IMG/VR virus record: IMGVR_UViG_3300037237_000103
Coordinates: 1-49,949 of that record
Direction: 5' to 3' (one strand)
Length of the DNA: 49,949 nucleotides
Origin: a virus
The position numbers and the translations under genes are program-made. Position 1 is the first letter of the stretch, and each line of letters starts with the position of its first letter. Below, one piece after another: positions 11,387 through 26,406 of this stretch. The notes beneath the pieces were generated by a model. That model did not search any database. It saw only the letters and a program-made list of their open reading frames with translations, and was not told where the DNA came from.

Positions 11387-11728
11387 GATGCTATCGGCGA
11401 AGGACCAAACGTAGCGCTGCCAAACAGCCGTTTCCGTTCGTGCGAACAGGAACGCGATTCCACTGCGGTGTTGACTCATCTTCCGCATGAAAGCCGTCAT
11501 GCTCTTCTGGTCATACGGTGGATTCAACCAGACGCGACCAAACCACGGCTCTTTAAGTCCGTCATAATTACTCCCGTCGAAGTGGTGATTCGCAGTTGCC
11601 CAGGGGCGCGGGTTTGGCGCTGCACATGGATCCAAATCGAACACCCCGAGTTTCTGTAAGATGATTGGGGGAGTTAGCCAGATAACACTCTTCCCGCGCG
11701 CGAGCTTGTTGTGACCAAAGCCGTCCAT
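11234..11728 (-). CDS. DNA N6-adenine methyltransferase (phage Dam family)
   Basis: 164 residues matching the phage Dam family: WLTPPIILQKLG, FDLDPCA (30-36), GRVWLNPPY with catalytic NPPY (69-72), FARTETAVWQRYVW, ILFLEGRVQF and a final APSALIAY. It transfers a methyl group from S-adenosylmethionine to adenine N6, probably protecting phage DNA from restriction. It shares one base with the stop of the primase gene (TAATG), so it is coupled to replication genes. It is one of four methylase genes in the window. Confidence 0.85.
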   Translation of the reverse strand: MDGFGHNKLARGKSVIWLTPPIILQKLGVFDLDPCAAPNPRPWATANHHFDGSNYDGLKEPWFGRVWLNPPYDQKSMTAFMRKMSQHRSGIAFLFARTETAVWQRYVWSFADSILFLEGRVQFYRPDGSKAWSAGAPSALIAYSAFDTAVLRVSGLRGALVRAY

Positions 11729-14118
11729 TACTGATGAGCCCTCCCAAAAGACGCCGCAGCGGGCACTGGACGCCCGGTATTGGCCGTCTGATAGCTCTTC
11801 TCAGCCTCGGGGCCGTTCGTAATCTGACGAGCGAGCGATGAGTCATGGACGTACAGGCGAGGCTTGCCGCCATCGGGCAGAACGACGTTGTTACAGCGCC
11901 CCTGCTTCAGCGCCGGATGCCAGCGGTATCCAAGGCTCTCCAATATATCCCGCCGGCGTGAATGACTGACCTTCCGCTTGAGGTTGATTTCTTCTAACAA
12001 CCGGTCGAAGTAAATCGAGGATATCCAGCCGCCGCTGAATCCCTGCAGGCCCTGCTCGACGCATTCCATCACTTCCTGCTCTATCGATCCCGTTGAGGCC
12101 GCAATCGCATCCGCCGTCGTTGAGCTGACTGGCGCTCTCTGGCAATCCTTTGCTGGATTGAATTCGACAGGGATAGGAAGTGTATGGAGGTATTCTGCGA
12201 CGATTGCGTAACCGTCATTGCGAAGCCATCGATATAGCTCTGGAAAATAATCTCCGCACATTCCGTCTCGCTCAAGGTGGCTAACTTCCTGTTGAGCTGC
12301 GAATAGAACACAGAATCGACGGTCGTTCGCCGTTTTTTTGATTGCATCTTTGTGATTGCTGTTAAACATGAAATTGCCGCAAATATCCCCGCTCGTCTGA
12401 TCCACTCCTTTAGCTTCAATCTCAAGGCCGTCGCCTCCTGTAATCATCGGCTTCAGTTCTTCGATGATTTCCCGGCGCGCGTCCGGGACGTAAATATCCT
12501 CCACCGCAAAGAATAGTTTGCCGACCATCCAGGCGTTGAATTGCTGCGCGAGCTTGCTCGCCTTGGGCCAATGCGTGTACCGCCGGCCGATAGCTTCCGC
12601 CACGCAGCGCGTGAACAGCGTCTTTCCGTTCCCTTCGACGCCCTGCAGCAGCGGAGCCCACTGGAACTTGAAGCCTTTATGCTGGACGCAGGCTGCCATG
12701 TACGACAGCAAAATGAGCTGGTCGGTCGGGTTCGGAAGAACCTTCGCGAGATGGGCGAGGAAGGGAGTCGGATCCCCTTCCTTCCGCGGGATATCGACGG
12801 GGAAATAGCTATTGACGAAGGTCTGTCCGTTGCGTTCGACGATGGCGGCCGATTCCAGCTCCGGCCGGAAGCAAGTCCCGTTGACCTTCGGGTAGCGGAT
12901 GACCTGAGATTGCGTGAACGCCTCGAAGGCATCGCGCGAACTGCGCTCGTTCTGGCAATCCATCCTGAAGTTGTAGCTGCCGTAGTGAACGCGGAACTGA
13001 TCGGGCTTGAGGATGTGACCGCCAGGTTTCAGCACGCGATGGGAGTCGGTGATGTAGACGCAGCCCTTAAATAGCTCCATCTGCGCATCAGGCGTCAAAA
13101 ATCGATTCACTTCCTCAAATGCGATCCCCTCAGCCGTAGGGACGACCTGGTTGGCTTCCGGTACTGTAGATCCCACCGCCGAGCCGGCTGCCTGAAATAC
13201 GTCATTCTGACGCGCTACAGCCCCTAAAATCGTGCGGGGCAGATAGTCTTCCCTCTCCCATTTGTCCCGCACGAGCCTTGAGCCCATCATCAGCCGGCGG
13301 ATGCGCTCGCAGTCCTTACCCGTCCAGAAGGCGAGATGTTGCGCGAGAGCCGCGTCGGCCGCGCTGCAGTCGTAAGGACGAACGGGATCAGGATAGGCGG
13401 GGCCGAGCACCGTATCGTTCGCAAACCAGAGGTCAGCAAAGCAGGCGCGGGGGCCGAAGGCGGAGGCAGCGCTGCGCGAGCGCAGAGCAGCTTCGATCAG
13501 CTTTTGATCGTCGGTGATCCCGGACCATTCGGCGACGGGGCTGCTCGTCCACTCCTGAGAAATTGCTGTATTGCTGTCACCTGGGAAATAACATGCGACC
13601 AGCGCGGGCAGGGCGGAGGAGCAATCGGTTGCTGCGTTTCCGACTGCGGATATTCCGGTGAGAGCGACGAAGCGCCCGGTATGGTAGAACTCAAGTCCGA
13701 GAGCATCATTGCGGCAACTGTGAGGCGGTACGACTCCAGTTCCAAAATAGTGCAACCCGACGCCTGAGCGGCTGACTTCGAGGGCGCATCCGTTGAGGAG
13801 CCGCGCGAGTCCCTGAGATTCAGAGGACCATCCGGATTCAGTAAGTGCGTTATCGGCATCGAGAAACCAAAAGGGATCCTGTTCGGTAAAAGTGAAGCCT
13901 ACGCCATAAGGCTCGCCCCACTGCGCGGCGATAGAGATAGCCCGCTCAACGGGCAGCCAATAACTGGGATCGTGAGCACTGACAACCGCGCCCGTCCTCC
14001 AATCGACGGGAAATTTGTCGGTCTTTCCGGGCCGCGACACGCTCGGTACGGCTTTGTAGATAATAAATTGAGAGTAAGCAGCAAACGCGGCGAGTGCTGC
14101 GGGTAGCTCAGTGAGCAC
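11728..14118 (-). CDS. Primase-polymerase/SF3 helicase fusion
   Basis: 796 residues from a GTG at 14118. The N-terminal 180 residues look like an archaeo-eukaryotic primase/PrimPol domain: FLDADN with D87 and D89 as the metal pair, SRSGVGLHYFG with H123, then GLEFYHTGRFVALTG. The C-terminal part is an SF3-like ATPase of the DUF5906 type: Walker A GVEGNGKT (493-500), a Walker B-like LFFAVEDIY (about 535-543) and NFMFNSNHKDAI. The layout resembles the NrS-1 phage primase-polymerase. It would prime and unwind at the phage origin. Genes for two methylases precede it and Dam follows. Confidence 0.85.
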   Translation of the reverse strand: MLTELPAALAAFAAYSQFIIYKAVPSVSRPGKTDKFPVDWRTGAVVSAHDPSYWLPVERAISIAAQWGEPYGVGFTFTEQDPFWFLDADNALTESGWSSESQGLARLLNGCALEVSRSGVGLHYFGTGVVPPHSCRNDALGLEFYHTGRFVALTGISAVGNAATDCSSALPALVACYFPGDSNTAISQEWTSSPVAEWSGITDDQKLIEAALRSRSAASAFGPRACFADLWFANDTVLGPAYPDPVRPYDCSAADAALAQHLAFWTGKDCERIRRLMMGSRLVRDKWEREDYLPRTILGAVARQNDVFQAAGSAVGSTVPEANQVVPTAEGIAFEEVNRFLTPDAQMELFKGCVYITDSHRVLKPGGHILKPDQFRVHYGSYNFRMDCQNERSSRDAFEAFTQSQVIRYPKVNGTCFRPELESAAIVERNGQTFVNSYFPVDIPRKEGDPTPFLAHLAKVLPNPTDQLILLSYMAACVQHKGFKFQWAPLLQGVEGNGKTLFTRCVAEAIGRRYTHWPKASKLAQQFNAWMVGKLFFAVEDIYVPDARREIIEELKPMITGGDGLEIEAKGVDQTSGDICGNFMFNSNHKDAIKKTANDRRFCVLFAAQQEVSHLERDGMCGDYFPELYRWLRNDGYAIVAEYLHTLPIPVEFNPAKDCQRAPVSSTTADAIAASTGSIEQEVMECVEQGLQGFSGGWISSIYFDRLLEEINLKRKVSHSRRRDILESLGYRWHPALKQGRCNNVVLPDGGKPRLYVHDSSLARQITNGPEAEKSYQTANTGRPVPAAASFGRAHQ

Positions 14119-22998: not shown

Positions 22999-23817
22999 AT
23001 GGCCGTACAGTTCAAAGCAGAGCATGAGAGGACCAGCGAGTATCGGTTTTTTCCCAAAGATTTGACGATCCGGGCGGAACTCAACGGCCGCCATGACAAA
23101 CCGGACGTTGAAGAACTGATCAAAGATATCTTGGAGCATGGGCAGCATACCCCCGTTCCCATCCGCAACGAAGGCGGCGAGGCCGTTCTGGTTGCGGGAT
23201 TCTCCCGTTGGCGCGCCATCAGCGAGATTAACAAGCGAAAGCTGACAGAAAAACCGCTGCAGCTCCGTTGCACTTATGTTCGCTGCGACGAGCGCGAAGC
23301 GTTCCTGATGAACATCTCGGAGAACCGCTTCCGCAACGATGTGACGGCCATTGATGACGCTCACAACATGCAACGGCTCCTGAACGTTTACCAGATGACG
23401 GAGGAGGAGATTGCGAAGCAGTATTTCCCGACCGCGAAGACGACCCCGGAGATCGCGAAGGCTCTCAAATGGGTTAAGGATCGCATCGCGCTCATCGGCC
23501 TGACGCCGGAAGCAGTGAAAGCTGTTCGCGACGGAAGAGTAAAGGAAACCGCAGCCGTCGCCATCTCCAAACTAACTGCGGCGCAACAAAAAGAAGCAGT
23601 CAAAGGGGACGGGCCGGTTAAAGGTAAGGACGTGGCCGCCGTTAAAGGTCCGAAGCCCGCGAAGGTCACTCCAATGGATCCGGAGTTGCGCCGTCGCATC
23701 ACTGCAGTTTGTGACTCAGCGGAGTGGGATAACTACAACGAAGCCGAGAGCACTCACATCGAAGTTAACGCCGTCTTACTTGCCGCGCTGAGGAATTACA
23801 CAGAAGAGGCAAAGTGA
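22999..23817 (+). CDS. ParB-like nuclease/DNA-binding protein
   Basis: 272 residues with GGAAAGGGG before the ATG. The N-terminal ParB/sulfiredoxin-like domain has IKDILEHGQHTPVPIR, then LVAGFSRWRAISEI (the ERR-RA box variant) and NISENRFRNDVTAID. A helix-turn-helix follows (MTEEEIAKQYF, TTPEIAKALKWVKDRIAL) with a lysine-rich linker and acidic C-terminus. No ParA partner is present, so a replication or transcription role is more likely than partitioning. Its stop overlaps the GTG of the polymerase gene. Confidence 0.75.
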   Translation: MAVQFKAEHERTSEYRFFPKDLTIRAELNGRHDKPDVEELIKDILEHGQHTPVPIRNEGGEAVLVAGFSRWRAISEINKRKLTEKPLQLRCTYVRCDEREAFLMNISENRFRNDVTAIDDAHNMQRLLNVYQMTEEEIAKQYFPTAKTTPEIAKALKWVKDRIALIGLTPEAVKAVRDGRVKETAAVAISKLTAAQQKEAVKGDGPVKGKDVAAVKGPKPAKVTPMDPELRRRITAVCDSAEWDNYNEAESTHIEVNAVLLAALRNYTEEAK

Positions 23818-25817
23818 TCCCTCCGCCGCCTCCGCCGCCCCAAGGGAAGTCGGTAGCTTTCTACGATACTGAGTGTTTCCAGAATTACTGGTTGCTGAAG
23901 ATTGGACCTCCCGGCTCAGTCTTCAGCTTTTCGTTGCGCTCCGGTCAGAGCTTCGACCCTGCGAGCCACGAACGCATCCTCTATCTCTTCAGTTTATTTA
24001 CCGTCGTGAGTTTCAACGGGAACTATTACGACGTGCCGATGATATCCGCGGCTCTGAGCGGCTTTACCTGCGAACAACTCAAATGGTTGAGCGACGAGAT
24101 AATCGTTGTCGGCCGCAAGCCCTGGGAGTTAGGGGACGCCTGTACCTGGCGGCCGCCTGACCATATCGACGTGATGGAAGTGCTCCCCGGAACTGGATCG
24201 CAGAAGCAGTACGCCGGGCGCATCCACTGCAGGTTGATGCGCGACTGTCCTTACGAGCCGGGAACCTGGCTCACAGAAGAGCAGATAACTCAGGTTGATC
24301 TGTATTGCGAAAACGACCTTTCGGTACTCGCCGACCTGTACGGCGGGCTCGAACCGCAACGCGTCATGCGCGACCATCTCAGTAAGCGTTACGGAATCGA
24401 TCTTCGCAGCAAGTCTGACGCGCAGCTCGCAGAGGCCGTCATCAAGCGCCGCTGCGAAGACGCCGTTGGCTCTCGCATCTATAAACCGGAAATCGATTGG
24501 AACATCCGATTCCGCTACGAGCCCCCTCACTGGATGGGATTTTGTGATGAGCGCCTGATAGCTGCGTTCGAAGCTATCAGGCAAGCCGTCTTCCAGCTCG
24601 GGCCGTCCGGAGCCGTCGTCATGCCCGAGCAGTTAGAAGGTCTGGAAATTACTCTGGGTAAGACAACTTACCGTCTCGGCATCGGAGGCTTACATTCGAA
24701 GGATGAACGCTCGGTTCATAAGAGTACTGAGACGCACATCATCCGCGATTGCGACGTAGCGAGCTACTATCCGAATCTGATCCTGAACTCGGGAAAATAT
24801 CCGCCGGCGCTCGGATCGGTTTTTGCCGAAGTATATCGCGCGCTCAAGGATGAGCGGTTGGACGCGAAGGCTCGTCAAAAGAAATTGGATAAATCGGATC
24901 CCGAATACCTTCTGACTCAATGCGAGAATGAGGGCGGCAAGATCATGATTAACGGGACGTTCGGGAAACTCGGCAACCTCTATTCGATCCTCTTCGCTCC
25001 GGAGATGCTGATTCAAACTACAGTGACCGGCCAGCTCGCGCTGCTGATGCTCATCGAGTGGCACGAAATGCAGGGGATCGAAGTTATCTCCGCTAACACG
25101 GACGGAATCATTCTCAACTGTCCCCGCAACAAAGTCGAAGTGAGCGACAGCATCATCAGGTATTGGGAAAAGACGACCGGGCTTGAAATGGAGATAGGGC
25201 TATATCGGGCGATCTACTCGCGCGACGTGAACAACTACTTCGCCGTAAAGACGAATGGGGAAGTGAAGCGCAAGGGGGAATATTCAGTCGCCGGGCTCAT
25301 TGAAAAGAAGAACCCCGACGTGGAGATTTGCGGCGATGCTGTCGCCGAATTTCTCTCTAAAGGAACACCGATTATTTACTCGATTGCCAGTTGCCTGGAT
25401 ATCCGGAAGTTTGTCAAGGTGCGCGCGGTCGCCGGCGGAGGCGTCAAGCTGTGGGGAGAAGGTCCGAAAGCGGAGCTGGTGCGCGATATGACGGCCACTC
25501 TTGAGGCGAACGGATGGACGAAGAGCGGCCGTAAGTGGGCACGCGCGGGCGAACTGACTGATGCAACAACAGCTTACAAGAGTTGTTTCACGCCGCAGCG
25601 CCCTGAGTATCTGGGAAAGGTCATTCGCTGGTACTACGGTACCCGCTCGCCGGGTTCCATTGTTTACAACACGAACGGAAATACCGTATCTCTCTCCTAT
25701 GGTGCGCAGCCTTGCATGACTCTCCCCGAGGAGTTTCCGGCTGACGTTGATTACGGATGGTATCTCGAAAACTGCGAAAAGATGCTTCGCGACGTGGGAT
25801 ACTATGAGTCGTTATGA
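23814..25817 (+). CDS. Family B DNA polymerase
   Basis: 667 residues, compact for the family. The proofreading exonuclease motifs are YDTE (17-20), SFNGNYYD (66-73) and YCEND (164-168). Polymerase motif A is DVASYYP (314-320), motif B is KIMINGTFGKLGN (376-388) and motif C is ANTDG (427-431). In motif C the first aspartate of the usual DTD is asparagine while the catalytic second aspartate is kept, a variant common in phages. It starts with GTG inside the ParB-like stop and begins with seven consecutive prolines. It is the main replicative polymerase. Confidence 0.92.
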   Translation: MIPPPPPPPQGKSVAFYDTECFQNYWLLKIGPPGSVFSFSLRSGQSFDPASHERILYLFSLFTVVSFNGNYYDVPMISAALSGFTCEQLKWLSDEIIVVGRKPWELGDACTWRPPDHIDVMEVLPGTGSQKQYAGRIHCRLMRDCPYEPGTWLTEEQITQVDLYCENDLSVLADLYGGLEPQRVMRDHLSKRYGIDLRSKSDAQLAEAVIKRRCEDAVGSRIYKPEIDWNIRFRYEPPHWMGFCDERLIAAFEAIRQAVFQLGPSGAVVMPEQLEGLEITLGKTTYRLGIGGLHSKDERSVHKSTETHIIRDCDVASYYPNLILNSGKYPPALGSVFAEVYRALKDERLDAKARQKKLDKSDPEYLLTQCENEGGKIMINGTFGKLGNLYSILFAPEMLIQTTVTGQLALLMLIEWHEMQGIEVISANTDGIILNCPRNKVEVSDSIIRYWEKTTGLEMEIGLYRAIYSRDVNNYFAVKTNGEVKRKGEYSVAGLIEKKNPDVEICGDAVAEFLSKGTPIIYSIASCLDIRKFVKVRAVAGGGVKLWGEGPKAELVRDMTATLEANGWTKSGRKWARAGELTDATTAYKSCFTPQRPEYLGKVIRWYYGTRSPGSIVYNTNGNTVSLSYGAQPCMTLPEEFPADVDYGWYLENCEKMLRDVGYYESL

Positions 25818-26406
25818 AAAAAAAGGGAATTATATACTTCACTTCCCCAGTGGAATCAAAGACTTAGGAGACTAAAATGATTGAATTTGAAGTCGTTTAT
25901 GCCGATCCGCCGTGGCGTTATGATTTCAGTAAGTCGGACAGTCGAGAAATCGAGAATCAGTACCCTACGATGACTGTTGACGAAATTTGTGCTCTAAAAA
26001 TCCCATCGGCGAAGAACTCTGTTCTCTACCTTTGGGCCACCGCCCCAAAACTGCGCGAGGCGCTACAGGTTATGGCTGCGTGGGGGTTCGAGTACAAAAG
26101 TCACGGAATATGGGATAAAGAGATAATTGGCATGGGTTACTGGTTCCGTGGACAGCACGAATTACTGCTGGTGGGCACAAAGGGGAAGTTTTCTCCGCCA
26201 CCACAGCCGTCGCGGATTGGTTCGGTGATTCGAGAAAGACGTAGTAAGCACTCTAAAAAACCTAATACGGTGCGTGATTTAATTGCCTCGTGGTTCCCAG
26301 ATAAAAATCGAGTTGAGTTGTTTGCGCGGCAAGAAACGGTTGGATGGTCTGTGTGGGGAAACGAAGTGAAATCTGGGAAGTTAAGTATATAATTCCCAAA
26401 AAAAAA
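25817..26406. mobile_element. Methylase cassette with 23-bp inverted repeats and A-tract duplication
   Basis: Inverted repeats at 25825-25847 and 26375-26397 match at 22 of 23 positions (the left begins GGGAATTATATACTTC). Outside them lie A8 (25817-25824) and A9 (26398-26406), like a target-site duplication. Inside is only the MT-A70 gene, whose stop lies in the right repeat. Deleting the unit leaves the polB stop, A8 and GGAG before the ATG at 26418, a normal operon junction. No transposase is present, so it would be non-autonomous. As an alternative, the left repeat followed leftward by eight T residues could act as a weak terminator. Confidence 0.6.
25877..26392 (+). CDS. MT-A70 family adenine methyltransferase
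   Basis: 171 residues with AGGAG nine bases before the ATG. Motifs are VVYADPPWRYDFS (DPPW at 10-13), YPTMTVDEICAL, VLYLWATAPKLREAL, GFEYKSHGIWDK, GMGYWFRGQHELLLVGTKG, and SKKPNTVRDLIASWFP near the end. This is the MT-A70 set known for N6-adenine methylation of DNA or RNA. The gene is visibly more AT-rich than its neighbours and lies between inverted repeats, so it was probably acquired separately. It is the fourth methylase gene of the window. Confidence 0.85.
   Translation: MIEFEVVYADPPWRYDFSKSDSREIENQYPTMTVDEICALKIPSAKNSVLYLWATAPKLREALQVMAAWGFEYKSHGIWDKEIIGMGYWFRGQHELLLVGTKGKFSPPPQPSRIGSVIRERRSKHSKKPNTVRDLIASWFPDKNRVELFARQETVGWSVWGNEVKSGKLSI

What the first reader, a model, noticed from the sequence alone, without database searches (positions are those of the whole stretch)
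25817..26406. MT-A70 methylase carried in a transposon-like cassette: 23-bp inverted repeats plus A-tract duplication
Inverted repeats at 25825-25847 and 26375-26397 match 22 of 23 positions and enclose only the methylase gene. The outer edges are A8 and A9, like a target-site duplication. Removing the unit leaves the polB stop, then the A-tract, GGAG and ATG of the next gene, a normal junction. The gene is more AT-rich than its neighbours. There is no transposase or integrase, so this may be a small cargo element moved in trans, or a segment that inverts. I know of no such described element around phage MT-A70 genes.
Basis: partly seen in the sequence, partly recalled or inferred. Interest (0 to 1): 0.85.

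Follow-up and report, generated by a model that had tools for sequence, protein, structure and literature searches.

The report
Transposon cassettes spreading phage DNA-methylase genes
A methylase gene in this phage sits inside a tiny transposon without its own transposase, one of a large virus-associated family whose small members mostly carry DNA-modifying genes that probably shield phage DNA from bacterial restriction enzymes.

Summary
In detail: 23-bp inverted repeats (22/23) at 25825-25847 and 26375-26397 enclose only an MT-A70 gene, flanked by 8-bp direct repeats (AAAAAAAA). The terminal repeat is not private to this gene. It bounds 102 distinct elements with at least 7 of 8 matching target-site bases in the loci fetched, mostly uncultivated viral contigs; a reversed-pattern control scan found none. 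69 carry part or all of an IS1595-family transposase; one complete copy lies in Pelagerythrobacter marinus, at the edge of a predicted prophage. 33 carry none and are one- or two-gene cassettes of 300-1301 bp. Of these 33, 16 carry a recognisable DNA methyltransferase or Mom gene, against none recognised among 147 ORFs from their flanks. None of 39 polymerase relatives or 80 MT-A70 relatives has the repeats. One locus was seen with and without its cassette, and one cassette at two unrelated sites. Best reading: a mobile insertion cassette moved in trans by an IS1595-type transposase, carrying a probable anti-restriction gene. The architecture is known from bacteria (MICs, transporter ISs). A virus-associated IS1595 clade loaded with DNA-modification cargo appears new.

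The parts
25817..25824 (.). left copy of the 8-bp target-site duplication, AAAAAAAA
   Evidence: sequence
25825..25847 (+). left terminal inverted repeat, GGGAATTATATACTTCACTTCCC
   Evidence: the same terminus occurs in many other viral contigs
25877..26392 (+). cargo gene: MT-A70 family adenine methyltransferase, 171 aa, DPPW motif; the C-terminal GKLSI and the stop codon are encoded by the right terminal repeat
   Evidence: searches show the same GKLSI-stop ending in cassettes L005 and L006
26375..26397 (-). right terminal inverted repeat, 22/23 complementary to the left one
26398..26405 (.). right copy of the 8-bp target-site duplication, AAAAAAAA
   Evidence: sequence
23814..25817 (+). phage DNA polymerase gene; the element inserted directly after its stop codon
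   Evidence: phrog_1252, E 1.4e-169; 39 relatives lack the element near this gene

Best explanation
Window 25825-26397 is a non-autonomous transposon, a mobile insertion cassette (MIC). Its two 23-bp ends are the recognition sites of an IS1595-family DDE transposase supplied in trans by a related full-length element on another phage, a prophage or the host. The transposase cuts or copies the unit and inserts it into AT-rich, mostly intergenic phage DNA, duplicating 8 bp. The cargo is a single DNA methyltransferase gene, which probably protects the phage genome from host restriction. Cassettes of the same family carry other DNA-modification genes, so the system acts as a traffic route for anti-restriction genes between phages. 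Shown from sequence: the element, its ends, its target-site duplication, its family, the transposase type, the cargo bias, and presence/absence. Inferred: mobilisation in trans, expression, and the anti-restriction function.
For: (1) The terminus occurs in 7 other IMG/VR contigs, four of them as exact or near-exact pairs with perfect 8-bp duplications and one as a pair with one degenerate end. (2) A relaxed pattern hits at least 120 viral loci; the same pattern reversed hits none. (3) Of 137 TIR pairs chosen on the TIR alone, 100 have identical 8-bp flanks, against a chance rate of 2e-5 per pair; duplication GC is 0.17 against flank GC 0.57. The 137 include some repeat fetches of the same element. 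(4) 69 of 102 distinct elements carry an IS1595-type transposase, 66 of them over at least 250 aa; the example is PF12762 E 3.4e-40 plus PF12760, in an 1822-bp element of P. marinus with TSD TTCAATAG. (5) 33 elements have none; 16 of these carry MT-A70, N6_N4, Dam, C5 or Mom genes against none recognised in 147 flanking ORFs; Fisher p = 4e-14. (6) None of 39 polymerase relatives has MT-A70 or the TIR, and none of 80 MT-A70 relatives has the TIR. (7) The L078 methylase cassette is absent from the syntenic relative L272. (8) Cassettes L019 and L080 are 80% identical end to end, with different duplications and unrelated flanks.
Against: No exact empty site was found for the window itself: the closest relative, L135 (76% polymerase identity), has an HNH-like ORF at that place. 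No IS1595-type transposase was found in this record, which is linear and may be a fragment. A duplication of A8 is low-complexity. Movement was not observed. The 147-ORF control rests on truncated family lists (25 of 44 Pfam and 25 of 116 PHROG families shown), so a weak modification gene there could be missed. About half of the transposase-less cassettes carry genes of unknown function.
Confidence: 0.93

Rival explanations
1. The repeats are terminators or regulatory hairpins of an ordinary phage methylase gene and have nothing to do with transposition.
For: Each arm can pair its GGGAA with its TTCCC, and the left arm followed by the A-tract resembles a minus-strand terminator (sequence).
Against: The same arms flank unrelated genes and transposases in many phages, mostly with exact 8-bp direct repeats outside, and are absent around 80 MT-A70 relatives. 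The right arm is followed by A, not T, on the coding strand.
Confidence: 0.02
2. An invertible segment flipped by a site-specific recombinase acting at the inverted repeats.
For: Inverted repeats around one gene are the geometry of an invertible switch.
Against: The 8-bp direct duplications, insertion at many different sites and full-length relatives with a DDE transposase are not features of invertases. No Pfam or PHROGs match to a recombinase was listed for the cargo.
Confidence: 0.01
3. The cassette is a dead remnant: an IS1595 element that once took up the methylase gene but can no longer move.
For: No transposase in this record; the TIRs differ at one position; MT-A70 relatives elsewhere lack the ends, so this copy may be a single capture.
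Against: The ends match the consensus of the family, the duplication is intact, the ORF is open, and another cassette of the family occurs at two unrelated sites.
Confidence: 0.2
4. The element is a transposon cassette, but the cargo bias reflects selection after random capture, or sampling of viral contigs, and not a dedicated anti-restriction route.
For: Methyltransferases are the commonest flexible genes in phage metagenomes in any case (PMC7468147), so any mover of phage genes would carry many. Half of the cassettes carry unknown genes.
Against: The cassettes were found by their ends, without regard to cargo, and the flanking genes of the same contigs show no such bias.
Confidence: 0.35

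Closest known systems
Mobile insertion cassettes (MICs), e.g. MIC231 of Bacillus cereus; described in PMC3129680
   Same: IS ends around passenger genes with no transposase, movable by the transposase of a related intact IS
   Different: Here the ends are of IS1595 type, the carriers are phages, and the cargo is mainly DNA modification. The known MIC examples that I met were in bacterial genomes and plasmids.
IS1595 family and its transporter ISs (tIS), e.g. tISCpe8 and MTnSag1 (PMC5704250; Siguier et al. 2009, known here only through citation)
   Same: Transposase domain family (PF12762, PF12760); passenger genes inside IS1595 elements; terminal inverted repeats; target duplication
   Different: A separate, strongly supported transposase clade from viral contigs, at most 47% identical to the bacterial genome matches sampled, apart from the P. 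marinus copy; a terminus not found in the literature text searched; modification-gene cargo instead of antibiotic resistance
Orphan phage DNA methyltransferases as flexible genes in metagenomic islands (PMC7468147)
   Same: The same gene class gained and lost between otherwise similar phages
   Different: That study reported the pattern, not a vehicle; in the passages read here no inverted-repeat element is described

Membership tests
IS1595-family transposable element | DDE transposase with the ISXO2-like domain and an N-terminal zinc ribbon in the full-length relatives | tested here: met
   PF12762 E 3.4e-40 and PF12760 E 3.5e-10 for the P. marinus element; homologues in 69 TIR-bounded elements
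IS1595-family transposable element | terminal inverted repeats | tested here: met
   window 22/23; consensus GGGAATTATATACTTGACTCCC over 204 ends
IS1595-family transposable element | 8-bp target-site duplication (length from my own knowledge of the family) | tested here: met
   100 of 137 TIR-selected pairs have an exact 8-bp match; window A8/A9
IS1595-family transposable element | element encodes its own transposase | tested here: not met
   the window element holds only MT-A70, and the record holds no such transposase. It is therefore filed as a non-autonomous derivative, not as an IS
Mobile insertion cassette (MIC) | IS ends around one or more passenger genes, no transposase | tested here: met
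Mobile insertion cassette (MIC) | mobilised in trans by the transposase of a related IS | not testable with these tools
   needs a transposition assay; matching ends are shown
MT-A70 adenine methyltransferase | full-length domain with the DPPW catalytic motif | tested here: met
   PF05063, residues 4-163, profile 1-172 of 172; motif DPPW
Anti-restriction gene | protects phage DNA from a restriction enzyme | not testable with these tools
   inferred from family and context only

The most novel reading that the evidence does not exclude
A clade of IS1595-like transposons has specialised in living in phages. Together with its transposase-less cassettes it forms a dedicated, transposition-based exchange system that spreads DNA-modification (anti-restriction) genes among unrelated phages, and it accounts for much of the rapid turnover of orphan methyltransferases seen in environmental phage populations.
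Probability: 0.5. Interest if true: 0.92.

Novelty: new variant of a known kind. Interest (0 to 1): 0.84.

Why it matters
Orphan methyltransferases are among the most variable genes of environmental phages (PMC7468147), and the vehicle has been unclear. Here is a concrete one with defined ends, a defined enzyme family and a defined target footprint, so it can be searched for in any virome and rebuilt in a simple transposition assay. It also adds small transposon cassettes to the known movers of phage genes (homologous recombination, homing endonucleases, integrons) and names a mobile pool of counter-defence genes, about half of it still of unknown function.

Tried and rejected
Terminator and inversion readings were rejected (see rivals). 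A search for open reading frames interrupted by insertions gave mostly spurious frames in GC-rich DNA and no clear interrupted gene. Joined flanks searched against all fetched loci gave no convincing exact empty site; an empty-site homologue was then found through a neighbour gene of L078, while the same approach for L039 returned only copies that carry the element. The transposase in cultured phages gave only three distant, unannotated matches of about 31-35% identity; plasmids gave only matches under 60%, about 32-47% among those listed. Twelve bacterial transposases (39-47% identical) showed no TIR with an 8-bp duplication by my simple test, so their ends remain unknown. The TIR string was not found in any relevant paper. 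Relatives of a virus record cannot be drawn.

Full report
What is there. The window element runs from 25825 to 26397 (573 bp). Its ends are 23-bp inverted repeats differing at one position, it holds one gene (MT-A70 family, 171 aa, DPPW motif), and it is bordered by AAAAAAAA on the left and AAAAAAAAA on the right. It lies directly behind the stop codon of a DNA polymerase gene (phrog_1252, E 1.4e-169). The methylase stop codon lies inside the right repeat, so the last five residues, GKLSI, are written by the transposon end. Methylase cassettes L005 and L006 end with the same five residues.

The repeat defines a family. The exact 23-mer (one free position) occurs in 7 other IMG/VR contigs and in 1 contig among 84,980 bacterial and archaeal species genomes. 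Four of the viral contigs (L001, L002, L005, L006) have exact or near-exact pairs with perfect 8-bp duplications; a fifth (L007) has one degenerate end; L003 has a single copy next to a truncated transposase; L004 is the same prophage as the bacterial hit. Taking TIR pairs on end similarity alone, 100 of 137 have identical 8-bp flanks, against 2e-5 expected per random pair; the duplications have 17% GC in DNA of 57% GC. That set contains some repeat fetches of the same element. After removal of identical elements there are 102 with at least 7 of 8 duplication bases.

The enzyme. 69 of the 102 elements carry transposase sequence, 66 of them over at least 250 aa. The one examined in detail is in P. 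marinus: L014 2275-4096, 1822 bp, TSD TTCAATAG, with PF12762 (E 3.4e-40) and PF12760; the element begins near the end of a 40-kb stretch that IMG/VR lists as viral (L004). A tree of 73 transposases from viral contigs, the P. marinus copy and 12 bacterial homologues puts the viral ones plus P. marinus on one side of a branch with support 100/99. The bacterial sample was 398 Pseudomonadota genomes, in which nothing but P. marinus exceeded 47% identity. The viral set was chosen as the 80 best matches to the query, so the separation partly reflects sampling. Among 150 genomes of the P. marinus family only P. marinus has the TIR. Cultured phages give only three distant matches and plasmids only matches under 60%.

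The cassettes. 33 elements of 300-1301 bp have no transposase match. All but one were found by their ends, without regard to cargo. Recognised DNA-modification cargo: MT-A70 (window); N6_N4 methylase in L005, L006, L028, L078, L103 (1658-2462), L113, L114 and L122; Dam-type in L002 (broken by a stop codon), L124 (E 3.1e-6, just under Pfam's cut-off) and L039 (read by eye on the minus strand); C5 methylase in L060 and, weakly, L074 (E 0.004, below cut-off); Mom in L034 and L103 (11961-12588). That is 16 of 33, or 14 if L039 and L074 are left out. L029 has a 6-pyruvoyl-tetrahydropterin-synthase-like (QueD-type) gene, which may belong to 7-deazaguanine synthesis; its second gene hits only an unknown PHROG. 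The remaining cargo is unknown. Of 147 ORFs from the flanks of the same loci, no methylase or Mom family appears in the listed Pfam and PHROG families, and the only ORF with a methylase-like motif is an endonuclease VII. Fisher p = 4e-14 for 16/33 against 0/147, and 3e-11 if three had been missed. Elements with a transposase also carry some modification genes: an N6_N4 methylase (L044), a methyltransferase (L110), Mom and C5 matches, and two PAPS-reductase-like genes (L020, L064).

Movement. None of 39 relatives of the window polymerase has an MT-A70 gene or a TIR near it; the closest, L135, has an HNH-like ORF there. None of 80 MT-A70 relatives has a TIR. So gene and ends came together in this lineage. 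For the methylase cassette L078 the relative L272 aligns on both sides (75% over 3.7 kb, 72% over 1.9 kb) and lacks the element, with a short gap at the junction. Cassettes L019 and L080 are 80% identical over their whole length with different duplications and no similarity outside. L030 is 93% identical over 872 bp to the longer transposase-bearing L244 and keeps only a transposase remnant, as expected of an internal-deletion derivative. Records with two elements or TIR pairs include those of L103, L102, L061 and L006. Of 32 cassette records only three show any transposase match: one of 37% identity outside the cassette (record of L075), the L030 remnant and one short fragment. Records may be fragments, so this does not prove movement in trans.

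Mechanism. Shown: ends, duplication, transposase class, cargo bias, presence and absence. Inferred: the transposase acts in trans on the cassettes, and the cargo protects phage DNA from restriction. The TIR also contains a -35-like TTGAC pointing inwards; a -10-like box at the right distance (2 mismatches or fewer) is found at 36 of 204 ends against 6.9% of control positions, which suggests but does not show that the ends help to express the cargo.

Place among known things. MICs and IS1595 transporter ISs are known in bacteria (PMC3129680, PMC5704250). Methyltransferases are known as the most frequent flexible genes of environmental phages, without a named vehicle in the passages read (PMC7468147). 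I found no paper in the library searched that links the two; subscription papers and preprints were not searchable.

Noticed in passing
L103 1658-2462 and 11961-12588: One phage contig carries two independent cassettes, an N6_N4 methylase and a Mom gene, with different duplications.
   Followed up: partly
L029 9791-10945: A cassette with a QueD-type (6-pyruvoyl tetrahydropterin synthase) gene and a second gene of unknown family; possibly 7-deazaguanine DNA modification.
   Followed up: partly
L020 867-2766 and L064 1849-3765: Two transposase-bearing elements also carry PAPS-reductase-like genes; a link to phosphorothioate DNA modification is only a guess.
   Followed up: no
L019 2191-2825 and L080 6312-6937: The same 186-aa gene of unknown family travels in both cassettes at unrelated sites; a candidate new counter-defence gene.
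   Followed up: partly
terminal 23 bp of the elements (window 25825-25847 and 26375-26397): The TIR reads TTGAC inward (consensus) and TATAAT outward and offers stop codons to outgoing reading frames of the cargo; it may help to express the cargo and to end its translation.
   Followed up: partly
window 11728-14118 (-): An NrS-1-polymerase-like gene (PF22763, PF19263) in a phage that also encodes a separate DNA polymerase at 23814-25817.
   Followed up: no
L013 1039-2200: A relative with the same TIR has a transposase cut short after its N-terminal part, followed by a lysine/arginine-rich ORF like the one in the P. marinus element; the second end is not recognisable.
   Followed up: partly
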